Shown here in pieces: positions 56,186 through 59,057 of a stretch of DNA of 64,000 nt. The position numbers were made by a program, and so were the translations under genes. The stretch spans positions 1 to 64,000 of the forward strand of contig JABUFB010000004.1 in NCBI GenBank assembly GCA_013314775.1, given 5' to 3'. Positions within the stretch are counted from its first letter, which is position 1, and every line of letters begins with the position of its first letter. This DNA is from Armatimonadota bacterium (GTDB lineage: Bacteria > Armatimonadota > Zipacnadia > Zipacnadales > JABUFB01). Under the pieces are notes generated by a model that was not told the origin of the DNA, made no database searches, and saw nothing but the letters and a program-made list of their open reading frames with translations.

Positions 56186-56281
56186 CTAGTTGCAGTCCCA
56201 GTGGCTCGCGACGATGGCCTCGTTGTGCCGCATCCACTTGGCGTGGCCGTCCAGGAACCCCATGTTGCAGGTGACGCGAAT
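56186..56281 (-). pseudogene. C-terminal remnant of a pseudopilin gene
   Basis: On the minus strand the frame reads VTCNMGFLDGHAKWMRHNEA then ends SHWDCN and TAG 56186-56188. This is the H-X9-DG end of the same pseudopilin type found intact at 32476 and 59269. Upstream of VTC the homology stops and the sequence runs into the dual-OB gene (stop at 56303). The prepilin signal and body are missing and are not found on the other side of the 56.3-58.1 kb cassette. Confidence 0.75.
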
Positions 56282-56302
56282 GCAGCGGCGTACACGGGCC
56301 CC

Positions 56303-57037
56303 TCAACGGCGCAGACCCACCGTTCGCTGCATACTGGCTTCTTTGACGACCCAGTCTGGTACCGCGAACGCCGCCGCTACCAGTTTGTACAATGCCCCTT
56401 GGAACGGCTCTCCAAGGCTAACCGTCAGCACCAGAGCCTCATCGTCAGCGCATATCGGTCCGTTGGGGTACAACTGGTGCTCGCCGAACTCGTACTGTTG
56501 CCTCAGGTAGGTGCCTTCGAGACTTGGGTCGGTCACCGCGAAAACGTACACATGGCGCCCCATCTCGAAACGCATCCGCAGACGCGGCCGGTTGCGGAAC
56601 TCATTCCATTCCTTGATGAGAGTTGCCTTGGCTGGAGCGACCAATGCGAGCGACCACCTCAGATGCCGGCGGACCAGTTCGCTCTCGGATATCCGATCCC
56701 TTGAGCACCCGAAGATCGGGGTATTAGGGGCTGCGAGCTCGCGGGCGATGAGGCCAAGGTCATCGTCATCCGCTGGTCGAACCCTTTCCCACCAGTACTC
56801 ATCGTCGATCAGCCAGTTCTCAGGTTGGTGAGCATTCGGGCTCGCTTCCCTCAGGGGCGCCTCAACGACGTCTAGTACCTGAGGCTCACCCCCATCCTCG
56901 TACTTGTAGTCACACGGCATCAACTCACCGTGCTCGCGGGCGGAGACAGGCCTAACCCAACCGTTGCCATCGATCCGCAGTCCGGCGATGCAGCGTCCAT
57001 TGTGCTTCCTAGAATTCGCGAGACAGATCATCCGCAC
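56303..57037 (-). CDS. Dual-OB-fold domain protein
   Basis: A 244-residue protein starting at GTG 57037 (GGGGGG run upstream). It begins MRMICLANSRKHNGRCIAG and continues GNGWVRPVSAREHGELMPC, VLDVVEAPL, HQPENWLID, a pattern I recognise from memory as the dual OB-containing domain seen beside DUF488 genes in proposed nucleic-acid stress or defence loci. The second half (VYVFAVTDPSLEGTYLRQQY, ALVLTVSLGEPFQGALYKLV) would be the second OB fold. Last gene of a three-gene cassette, 13 bp after the second DUF488 gene. No catalytic motif is visible, so it probably binds nucleic acid or nucleotide. Confidence 0.65.
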   Translation of the reverse strand: MRMICLANSRKHNGRCIAGLRIDGNGWVRPVSAREHGELMPCDYKYEDGGEPQVLDVVEAPLREASPNAHQPENWLIDDEYWWERVRPADDDDLGLIARELAAPNTPIFGCSRDRISESELVRRHLRWSLALVAPAKATLIKEWNEFRNRPRLRMRFEMGRHVYVFAVTDPSLEGTYLRQQYEFGEHQLYPNGPICADDEALVLTVSLGEPFQGALYKLVAAAFAVPDWVVKEASMQRTVGLRR

Positions 57038-57050
57038 GCTGTCGCCCCCC

Positions 57051-57494
57051 CTATATGTGCCTGACCTGCAGGTCCCCCCAGCGCTCCGCGAGGTATTCGG
57101 CCACTAGCCTCCTGTGGCACTGTTCCGGTGCAGCCTCACTGCAGAGGAGGACTGATGGCTGGGCGAACTCAGCTCTGTCGATGACGTCCTCAATGTGGCG
57201 GTCTCGCATGAGCGCCACGAACTCCGCCTCGTATCGCGACCAGTCTTCCAGTTCACGGTACTCCCTCAGCATCTCCGCGGTCGGGGCGAACTTGGGTTCG
57301 TGCCGGTAGTCAGCGTCACAGATGGCTTTGAGAAAGTAGGCCAAGTCGTCTCGCTTTGTGAAGCCTGCGAGTTGAGACACATTGTTCAGACGCACATCGA
57401 TTAGCTGCTTTATCCCATGTTCCTTGAGAAGGCCGAAGAAGACAGACGCGCTCTTCTTCGCAAACCCAATCGTATAGAGGATCAATCCGGTCAC
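57051..57494 (-). CDS. DUF488-family protein (second of pair)
   Basis: A 147-residue DUF488 protein. N-terminal YTIGFAKKSASVFFGLL, then LIDVRLNNVSQLAGFTKRDD, and the C-terminal cysteine motif LLCSEAAPEQCHRRLVAEYL. The DVR and LxCxE...CHR motifs are the family signature and could hold a metal or form the active site. The biochemical activity of the family is not established to my knowledge. It begins five bases after the first DUF488 gene ends and is followed 13 bp later by the dual-OB gene. Related to but clearly diverged from its neighbour (GFAKKS versus GHSNHP). Confidence 0.85.
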   Translation of the reverse strand: MTGLILYTIGFAKKSASVFFGLLKEHGIKQLIDVRLNNVSQLAGFTKRDDLAYFLKAICDADYRHEPKFAPTAEMLREYRELEDWSRYEAEFVALMRDRHIEDVIDRAEFAQPSVLLCSEAAPEQCHRRLVAEYLAERWGDLQVRHI

Positions 57495-57499
57495 TCCGT

Positions 57500-58021
57500 T
57501 CAGAACAACGCGGGTTGCAGCCCACGTGCTCGTCGCATCTCAACCTGGGTTTCGGTCTCCACGTCTCCATTGCCCCTGATGTGCAGCACGTCCGCCCCGG
57601 CGTCCGTGAGCACCTTGCCGAGCAGCACGTGTCGATGGCAACGCACGGGGTCCTCTTCGCTGCACATGAGAGCTGTGACGGATCGCGTCGCCCTGGTACC
57701 GACCACCGCGATTGCCTCGCGGAAGAGGTCTGTGTCGGCAATCGTGCCATACTGAACGCGCCCGATCTCGTCGTAGTATTCCGGTCCATCGGGGAGTCCG
57801 CCTAGTGCGTTTCCTAGGTAAAGATAGCCGATGTCCGCAGTCTCCAGAGCGGTGCGCAGGGCAGTCCTATCAAAGTGCCTGCCCTGTTTCGAATAGGGTC
57901 GCGAACGGACGTCGATCACCAGACCGACAGAGTACCTCCGGAGCAGCCCAACGAACTTCTCAATCGGGTGGTTTGAGTGACCGATTGTGTAGACACGCGC
58001 GCGCTCACTAGCCCGCTCCAT
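57500..58021 (-). CDS. DUF488-family protein (first of pair)
   Basis: A 173-residue DUF488 protein. ATG 58021 is preceded by AGGAGAAGG; the frame runs to 58132 but that part contains the promoter. Motifs: VYTIGHSNHPIEKFVGLLRR, IDVRSRPYSKQGRHFD, LYLGNALGGLP, and the cysteine motif LMCSEEDPVRCHRHVLLGKV. First gene of the cassette DUF488-DUF488-dual OB, with its own near-consensus promoter. Base composition of the cassette looks slightly less GC-rich than the flanking genes, in keeping with transfer. Confidence 0.88.
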   Translation of the reverse strand: MERASERARVYTIGHSNHPIEKFVGLLRRYSVGLVIDVRSRPYSKQGRHFDRTALRTALETADIGYLYLGNALGGLPDGPEYYDEIGRVQYGTIADTDLFREAIAVVGTRATRSVTALMCSEEDPVRCHRHVLLGKVLTDAGADVLHIRGNGDVETETQVEMRRARGLQPALF

Positions 58022-58103
58022 CTCGCCTTCTCCTATCACTGTATCGGGGGGGATTCCTGCTACACTTCGGTGGCTCAAACAGTATCCCGTATTCCCACAC
58101 TTG

Positions 58104-58132
58104 ATCGTACCCTTAGCCATGAGGTGTGTCAA
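58104..58132 (-). promoter_or_regulatory. Promoter of the DUF488/dual-OB cassette
   Basis: Minus strand TTGACA (58132-58127), 17-bp spacer, TACGAT (58109-58104); leader about 76 nt. The -35 box starts 16 bp after the stop of the preceding DUF2156 gene, so the cassette is an independent unit. Confidence 0.65.
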
Positions 58133-58148
58133 CCCAACCTGCGGTTCG

Positions 58149-59057
58149 TTACCGCGCCGTCACCACGTACTTCTCCACCATCTTCACCGGGTGGTAGCTT
58201 TCCTTGGCCTTGCGCAGGCCGGGTTCACCCACATCCTGCTCGCGGTTGACGTACTCGAAGTCCTGCCATTCATGCTCCAAGAACTGCTGGTTGATTGCCT
58301 GGAACGCACCGTGCAGGTCAGGGCTGGCTTTCTCAATGTGGATGACCACGGTGGTGTCATTCAGCGGCTCTCCCAGCGCGAAAGCCTGGACTCTCCCTCT
58401 GACCATGAGACACCCGCCGGTGATCCCCAGTGCGTCGAGGTTGGAGAGCGCTTCTTTCACCGCCCGGGCTTCGGCGTGGAGGCTGGAGTAAAGGTCGCAG
58501 TGCTTCTCGTCGCACCACAGGTCCTGCAGGTCCTGACAGGCCTGCACGAGATCGGGGGTGATCCGGTGGTATTCCGGTTTGAACTTGCGGGTGAATTGTG
58601 TGATGTGGCGCACCTTGTCCTGGTAGCGCACTTCGGGCAGGTCCACCAGGTCCCGCACCCGGTACACGTAGTCCCAGTTGTCGCGGTCTGACTCTATGCT
58701 GAACTCATCCGCGGACAGCCCGAGCCGGGCTATCGCCGCCTCACCGATCCGCCAGAGTCGCGGGTTGTGCTCATGGTCGGCCATCCACTCCAGACAGGCG
58801 CGAACCTGGGCGGTTCCCGCGGCTTCGCCCAGCGGCGGCAACAGGAAGGAGTCTTCCGGGTCAGGCCGCAGGGCCAGGAGGCAGACGGCGCCCTCCAGTT
58901 CGGTCACCTGCAGACCGTACGGGTGCCTCCAGATGTACAGGTTGGTGAAGGTCAGTTCGGACGTCTCGGGCTGGAGTTCGTGCAGGAGCGCGTCGATGAT
59001 GGGCTTGTGCTCGATCTCCAGCGCCTCCATGTCTGGGAACGTAGGGAGCTCCTTCAA
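58149..59057 (-). CDS. DUF2156-family protein (LPG synthase C-terminal-like acyltransferase fold)
   Basis: A 302-residue cytoplasmic protein from TTG 59057 (GGGAGGA eight bases upstream). It matches the DUF2156 domain: SELTFTNLYIWRHPYGLQV, RDNWDYVYRVRDLVDLPEVR, YQDKVRHITQFTRKF, LGITGGCLMVRGRVQAFALG, VIHIEKASPDLHGAFQAINQ, ending FEYVNREQDVGEPGLRKAK. The fold is a tandem GNAT shared with phosphatidylglycerol lysyltransferase and FemX-like enzymes, which use aminoacyl-tRNA. The acceptor is unknown. Divergent from the pseudopilin at 59269. Confidence 0.85.
   Translation of the reverse strand: MKELPTFPDMEALEIEHKPIIDALLHELQPETSELTFTNLYIWRHPYGLQVTELEGAVCLLALRPDPEDSFLLPPLGEAAGTAQVRACLEWMADHEHNPRLWRIGEAAIARLGLSADEFSIESDRDNWDYVYRVRDLVDLPEVRYQDKVRHITQFTRKFKPEYHRITPDLVQACQDLQDLWCDEKHCDLYSSLHAEARAVKEALSNLDALGITGGCLMVRGRVQAFALGEPLNDTTVVIHIEKASPDLHGAFQAINQQFLEHEWQDFEYVNREQDVGEPGLRKAKESYHPVKMVEKYVVTAR

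What the first reader, a model, noticed from the sequence alone, without database searches (positions are those of the whole stretch)
56303..58132. Three-gene DUF488-DUF488-dual-OB cassette with its own promoter
Seen: a TTGACA-17-TACGAT promoter, then two diverged DUF488 genes 5 bp apart, then a predicted dual-OB protein 13 bp later, all on one strand. Both DUF488 proteins keep the DVR and CxE...CHR motifs, so neither is decayed. Known, from memory: DUF488 and dual-OB proteins recur together in loci proposed to act in nucleic-acid stress or defence, but no activity is established. Inference: two paralogous small enzymes plus an OB-fold binder form one complex acting on nucleic acid or nucleotides. 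The unit is compact, independent of its neighbours and sits beside a broken gene, which suits a mobile conflict or repair module.
Basis: partly seen in the sequence, partly recalled or inferred. Interest (0 to 1): 0.75.

Follow-up and report, generated by a model that had tools for sequence, protein, structure and literature searches.

The report
Mobile DUF488-DUF488-dual-OB conflict cassette
A compact three-gene cassette, two phosphatase-like enzymes plus a DNA-binding-type protein, was inserted into this bacterium's genome; the same trio travels through many bacterial phyla, often beside anti-virus genes, and is already listed as an untested phage-defence candidate.

Summary
The three genes are real and intact: DUF488 (57500-58021, minus), DUF488 (57051-57494) and DuOB (56303-57037). 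They match all three components of PADLOC's phage-defence candidate PDC-M45 (E 4e-49, 7e-64, 3e-51), so this is a new member of a catalogued but, as far as I could find, untested system. Of 121 DuOB loci, 103 carry two DUF488 genes beside DuOB (74 of 80 in a multi-phylum sample drawn by DuOB alone). The three proteins co-vary (r 0.73-0.81), and both DUF488s keep invariant D..R and C-x-E..C-H-R. In a same-genus genome an intact prepilin gene stands where the window has the cassette: 1,889 bp replaced 638 bp. Relatives sit on plasmids, in E. coli mobile elements (one beside mcrA), between HmaB and HmaC, and in RecQ operons; in some, mSLOG-DUF4326 replaces the first DUF488. Models give DuOB an RPA/HIN-like tandem-OB fold and DUF488 a tyrosine-phosphatase-like fold (moderate scores). 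Best reading: a mobile conflict module in which DuOB binds DNA and two cysteine enzymes process DNA ends or nucleotides. Activity is untested. The first gene starts at ATG 58021, not TTG 58132; the promoter match is no better than chance.

The parts
57500..58021 (-). DUF488 gene, B type (PDC-M45B-like), 173 aa, likely start ATG 58021
   Evidence: Pfam DUF488 70 bits; PDC-M45B 4e-49; start codon and GGAGAAGG
57051..57494 (-). DUF488 gene, C type (PDC-M45C-like), 147 aa; AlphaFold model pLDDT 91
   Evidence: Pfam DUF488 83.1 bits and DUF488-N3a 37.7 bits; PDC-M45C 7e-64; model; fold matches
56303..57037 (-). DuOB gene (dual OB, PDC-M45A-like), 244 aa; AlphaFold model pLDDT 94
   Evidence: Pfam DuOB 179 bits; PDC-M45A 3e-51; model; RPA/HIN-type fold matches
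58104..58132 (-). candidate sigma-70-type promoter TTGACA-17-TACGAT
   Evidence: 10 of 12 matches, but 0.7 sites expected by chance
56271..58159 (.). acquired 1,889-bp segment (cassette plus about 30 bp each side), replacing 638 bp of the same-genus genome; no repeats of 8 bp or more at its ends
   Evidence: blastn and junction alignment against G254 contig L173
56190..56270 (-). 3' remnant of a prepilin-like gene truncated by the replacement
   Evidence: intact 219-aa homologue at this place in L173

Best explanation
The cassette is a mobile conflict (probably anti-phage) module of the PDC-M45 type. Shown: conserved, co-inherited three-gene unit; two DUF488 proteins with invariant motifs; recent arrival in this genome; relatives on mobile elements and beside RM/BREX-related genes. 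Inferred mechanism: DuOB, a tandem OB-fold protein, holds DNA, most likely single-stranded DNA, ends or junctions exposed by phage replication or by a helicase or nuclease; the two DUF488 proteins, which look like tyrosine-phosphatase/rhodanese-type cysteine enzymes, act in sequence or as a heterodimer on a phosphate or sugar at DNA ends or on nucleotides, so that invader DNA can no longer be replicated or repaired, or host ends are protected while invader ends are not. Where Hma, RM or RecQ genes lie alongside, the trio would be their end-processing accessory.
For: Trio conserved in 103 of 121 loci, orders A-B-C (79) or B-C-A (19); distance-matrix correlations 0.81, 0.76, 0.73, 0 of 999 permutations as high; catalytic-type residues 99-100% conserved. 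DuOB model matches RPA-ssDNA (E 3.4e-4) and HIN DNA sensors, with telomere-end-binding protein, RPA and BrxL OB domains in the second look. DUF488 model matches PTP-fold phosphatases (PRL-1, SsoPTP, KAP, DUSP26) and diphthine-synthase/CbiL methylases at Z 7-8.7. DNA-system context: HmaA-HmaB-[trio]-HmaC in L083, HmaB/C-flanked in L075 and L088; RecQ in five loci; DUF488 fused to an Eco57I/DrmMI-like methylase next to a DrmD-like helicase (L062) and DuOB fused to a DEAD helicase (L053); type I, IIG and III RM genes or DrmA near single loci. Mobility: empty site, plasmids, E. coli elements.
Against: No biochemical or phage data. Neighbour enrichment was not measured against a control. Fold matches of DUF488 are middling (best Foldseek E 0.012), and similar Z values can be chance. 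DUF488 versus RapZ-C profile comparison is not significant (1.9%). The window locus itself has no recognised defence gene as direct neighbour (URO-D and LPG synthase). DUF4326 has been linked to ADP-ribose chemistry, which would favour free nucleotides over DNA ends.
Confidence: 0.45

Rival explanations
1. Free-nucleotide or NAD/ADP-ribose system: the DUF488 enzymes process a nucleotide signal or effector product, and DuOB is the sensor or scaffold.
For: In plasmids and E. coli, mSLOG-DUF4326 takes the place of the first DUF488; DUF4326 is proposed to process terminal phosphates on the ribose of ADPr (PMC9503650), and the same paper links SLOG domains to nucleotide sensing.
Against: No NAD-consuming enzyme was recognised among the recurrent neighbour families scanned; contexts with helicases and DNA methylases point to DNA.
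Confidence: 0.25
2. DNA-repair or counter-defence module carried by mobile elements for their own benefit (end healing, anti-restriction), not an anti-phage system.
For: RecQ genes beside the trio in five loci; cargo on plasmids and in prophage-like elements; some copies in contigs called viral.
Against: Also nested inside Hma defence operons between MTase and ATPase; no match in 50,697 sequenced phage records.
Confidence: 0.2
3. Housekeeping or metabolic operon with no conflict role.
For: In some groups the neighbours are metabolic (AMP-binding enzyme, phosphotriesterase, luciferase-like) and in one genus DuOB is fused to DapB.
Against: Patchy: 33 of 291 genomes of the phylum, and none of the genus and family members searched other than the window's own; recent replacement insertion; plasmid and prophage carriage.
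Confidence: 0.07

Closest known systems
PADLOC PDC-M45 (phage-defence candidate, components A, B, C)
   Same: All three components match, one each, with E-values 3e-51, 4e-49, 7e-64.
   Different: Order here is B-C-A rather than the commoner A-B-C. The candidate itself has no experimental test that I could find.
[quoted passage not shown] not held)
   Same: DUF488 with DVR and C..HR motifs; PTP-like and diphthine-synthase-like fold matches; PF20208, whose name refers to this superfamily, lies next to the trio in L035-L037.
   Different: RapZ-C relation not recovered by profile comparison here. The paper could not be read, so whether it describes this exact trio is not checked.
Hma / DUF499-centred BREX-related systems (PMC8565338, PMC12839542)
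   Same: In L083, L075 and L088 the trio lies between HmaB and HmaC.
   Different: The genes directly flanking the window cassette are not Hma genes, and most trio loci have none. The main text of PMC12839542 does not mention rhodanese or RapZ, and it was not among the papers holding the word DUF488.
DuOB-DUF488-[mSLOG-DUF4326] variant of plasmids and E. coli
   Same: Same DuOB and same C-type DUF488.
   Different: mSLOG-DUF4326 replaces the B-type DUF488.

Membership tests
PDC-M45 (PADLOC) | Component A (DuOB), B (DUF488) and C (DUF488) adjacent | tested here: met
   PDC-M45A 3.4e-51, B 4e-49, C 7.4e-64
PDC-M45 (PADLOC) | Protects against phage | not testable with these tools
   Needs an experiment; no report found
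DuOB (PF22557) | Profile score above the curated cut-off over the whole domain | tested here: met
   179 bits versus 27, profile 1-209 of 210
DuOB (PF22557) | Two OB folds | tested here: met
   pLDDT 94 model; best matches are multi-OB proteins, RPA and HIN domains, though second-look Z is at most 6.2
DUF488 (PF04343) | Profile score above cut-off | tested here: met
   83.1 and 70 bits versus 22.2
DUF488-N3a, active subclade (PF22751) | Profile score above cut-off of 27 | tested here: met
   C-type protein 37.7 bits; the B-type protein is below, 17.1 bits
Rhodanese/tyrosine-phosphatase superfamily | Catalytic Cys after a core strand and Arg at the start of the next helix | tested here: met
   C118 at the end of strand 114-118, R128 at the start of helix 127-139 in the model; both invariant. 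Spacing is 10, not the 6 of the classical PTP loop
Rhodanese/tyrosine-phosphatase superfamily | PTP/rhodanese fold | tested here: inconclusive
   PTP-fold phosphatases and diphthine-synthase-like enzymes at Z 7-8.7, Foldseek best E 0.012
RapZ-C-DUF488-DUF4326 clade | Profile relation to RapZ-C and DUF4326 | tested here: inconclusive
   hhalign 1.9% with RapZ-C; 11% with DUF4326 over the C..CH motif only
Hma / BREX-related | Helicase, methylase and DUF499 ATPase in the locus | tested here: not met
   Direct neighbours in the window are URO-D and LPG synthase; wider genome not searched for Hma

The most novel reading that the evidence does not exclude
The trio is a portable DNA-end or nucleotide-processing module that plugs into unrelated systems (Hma/BREX-related, RM, DISARM-like, RecQ) and also works alone. 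Its first enzyme slot can be filled by either DUF488-B or mSLOG-DUF4326, which implies a shared chemistry on nucleotide ribose or phosphate that no known defence system uses.
Probability: 0.3. Interest if true: 0.72.

Novelty: new member of a known kind. Interest (0 to 1): 0.42.

Why it matters
The gene set is catalogued but, as far as I could find, untested. This work adds points that make it testable: both enzymes keep invariant catalytic-type residues, so cysteine mutants are obvious controls; the three proteins are inherited as a unit; the first enzyme slot is exchangeable with mSLOG-DUF4326; the trio is nested inside Hma operons; and natural copies exist in E. coli mobile elements, one of them beside mcrA, so the system can be tested in a standard laboratory host. 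If it does process DNA ends or nucleotides, it would be a new use of phosphatase-like chemistry in bacterial immunity.

Tried and rejected
Promoter as evidence: rejected, one match against 0.7 expected. Transposon-type insertion: no repeats of 8 bp or more at the two junctions. Pseudogene reading: rejected, ORFs and motifs intact. Finding function through solved relatives by sequence: no usable match for any of the three proteins. RapZ-C link by profile comparison: not significant. Phage carriage: no DuOB in 50,697 phage records; eight contigs of the viral collection hold DuOB, not checked for true viral origin. Literature: no paper found on PDC-M45 or on DUF488 in defence; the most relevant paper recalled (Burroughs and Aravind, NAR Genomics and Bioinformatics 2023) is not held. 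Very broad DuOB alignments were too divergent for a collection scan. Not done: a control for defence-gene enrichment, and complex prediction (only single chains are offered).

Full report
What is there. On the minus strand of the window lie three intact genes in the order DUF488 (B type), DUF488 (C type), DuOB, separated by 5 and 13 bp. Pfam scores are 70, 83.1 and 179 bits. The better start is ATG 58021 with GGAGAAGG in front, directly before the conserved YTIGHS segment. The promoter-like site TTGACA-17-TACGAT is present, but 0.7 such sites are expected by chance in the same stretch.

It is a catalogued set. PADLOC-DB assigns the three proteins to the three components of one phage-defence candidate, PDC-M45: A 3.4e-51, B 4e-49, C 7.4e-64. 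PDC stands for 'phage defence candidate' (PMC11514479). I found no paper that tests PDC-M45 or links DUF488 to defence. A 2023 paper by Burroughs and Aravind, which I recall as defining a RapZ-C-DUF488-DUF4326 clade and predicting DNA-end processing, is not held, so it counts only as a lead from memory.

The unit is conserved. I collected 33 loci from the window's own phylum by DuOB profile, the window's included, 8 plasmid-collection loci and 80 loci from a species-level genome collection, selected by DuOB alone. Two DUF488 genes lie beside DuOB in 103 of these 121: A-B-C 79, B-C-A 19, with DuOB doubled or split 4, with a broken B 1. Four more have two DUF488s near a diverged DuOB that this profile missed but Pfam detects. 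In the 80-locus sample it is 74; of the other six, three stop at a contig end (L116, L129, L145), one (L139) has DUF4326 instead of B, one (L102) is a DuOB-DUF488 fusion with a second DUF488 on the other strand, and one (L078) has only one DUF488 beside it. Distances among 95 non-redundant loci correlate between the three proteins at r 0.81, 0.76 and 0.73, and none of 999 permutations came near. The three therefore travel and diverge together; this does not prove that they form a complex.

Both enzymes look active. In alignments of 102 B and 110 C sequences, D, R, the two cysteines, E, H and R are 99-100% conserved. B and C are clearly homologous (hhalign 99.9%) but distinct subfamilies: B has TIGHS and DVRSxPxSR, C has TIGFT and DVRLNNxSQLAGF. 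The C protein also passes the 'active DUF488-N3' Pfam model.

Structure. The C-type DUF488 model (pLDDT 91) has the first cysteine at the end of a core strand and the arginine at the start of the next helix. Its best structural matches are tetrapyrrole/diphthine-synthase-type methylases and PTP-fold phosphatases, Z 7 to 8.7; Foldseek alone gives E 0.012 at best. This fits the rhodanese-phosphatase superfamily, to which DUF4326 is assigned in PMC9503650, but at this level it is suggestive only. A direct profile comparison with RapZ-C was not significant. The DuOB model (pLDDT 94) matches RPA bound to ssDNA (E 3.4e-4) and HIN-domain DNA sensors, and in the second look LEF-3, RPA, telomere-end-binding protein and BrxL OB regions.

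It arrived recently. A genome of the same genus has the same two flanking genes (URO-D 94%, LPG synthase 93%) with an intact 219-aa prepilin-like gene between them. In the window, homology stops at 56270 and resumes at 58160: 1,889 bp replaced 638 bp, leaving only the last ~30 codons of the prepilin gene. The segment holds the cassette and about 30 bp on each side, and its ends share no repeat of 8 bp or more. The same-genus genome and the two same-family genomes searched have no DuOB.

It moves elsewhere too. Relatives lie on plasmids of Rhodovastum, Allochromatium, Agrobacterium, Klebsiella, Citrobacter, Acinetobacter, Moraxella and others. Neighbours there include CBASS genes (L069), Csm6 and Cas1 (L067), viperin (L070) and a NotI-type RM system (L068). 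In 3 of 5,426 E. coli genomes it lies in mobile elements: one at icd with integrase, excisionase and mcrA (L204), and two at ffs with integrase and recombinase (L205, L206). NCBI's annotation there already says 'dual OB domain-containing protein'.

Associations with DNA systems. In L083 the order is HmaA (1,712 bits), a 182-aa protein, HmaB (1,540 bits), DuOB, DUF488, DUF488, HmaC-like; L075 and L088 show the same HmaB-trio-HmaC order by sequence clustering, with the L088 ATPase scoring 1,153 bits as HmaC. The records are titled Nitrospira, Latescibacterota and Acidobacteria. Hma was named in PMC8565338 and is treated as a BREX-related system in PMC12839542, whose main text has no mention of rhodanese or RapZ. 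Five loci of the window's phylum have a RecQ-like helicase gene in the same orientation, four of them directly adjacent. In L062 a DUF488 domain is fused to an Eco57I/DrmMI-like methylase next to a DrmD-like helicase, and in L053 DuOB is fused to a DEAD helicase. A Schlafen-AlbA/HATPase gene lies upstream in eleven loci, mostly 10-41 bp away. Single loci have type I, type IIG and type III RM genes or DrmA nearby. In other groups the neighbours are metabolic. I did not measure enrichment against a control.

An exchangeable slot. In five plasmid-collection loci, L139, the three E. coli loci and three contigs of the viral collection, the gene after DuOB and the C-type DUF488 is DUF4326 (with an mSLOG domain in the two scanned by Pfam) and no B-type DUF488 is present. 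The C type is the constant partner. This suggests that B and DUF4326 do equivalent jobs.

Mechanism. Shown: unit, conservation, mobility, folds at the levels stated. Inferred: DuOB holds DNA; the two cysteine enzymes act on phosphate or sugar at DNA ends or on nucleotides; the outcome harms an invader or protects the host. I put this at 0.45 against free-nucleotide signalling (0.25), repair or counter-defence (0.2) and housekeeping (0.07).

Verdict. A genuine, intact, recently acquired member of a known candidate kind, with several context findings that make a sharp experiment possible; not a new kind of system on present evidence.

Noticed in passing
L038, L039, L040, L042: In four genomes of one genus DuOB lies in one open frame of 524-581 aa; in L038 Pfam shows the rest to be DapB (dihydrodipicolinate reductase).
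   Followed up: partly
L083, L075, L088: The trio lies inside Hma (DUF499, BREX-related) operons, between methylase HmaB and ATPase HmaC, in three different phyla.
   Followed up: yes
L204 9335-11018; L205 9260-10955: E. coli mobile elements at icd (beside mcrA) and at ffs carry DuOB-DUF488-DUF4326; 3 of 5,426 genomes.
   Followed up: partly
L080 6739-7968 and ten other loci: A Schlafen AlbA_2 plus HATPase_c_4 protein of about 410 aa is encoded upstream of the trio in eleven loci of several phyla, usually within 41 bp.
   Followed up: partly
L047 4050-8639: A 1,529-aa protein carries a B-type DUF488 at its C-terminus; the rest has no Pfam match.
   Followed up: no
L114, L115, L143, L144: Chloroflexota loci with the trio near elongation factor G and a VTT-domain gene; in three of them DuOB is doubled.
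   Followed up: no
window genome G000: The genome has 45 matches to the URO-D-family neighbour, a large paralogous expansion.
   Followed up: no
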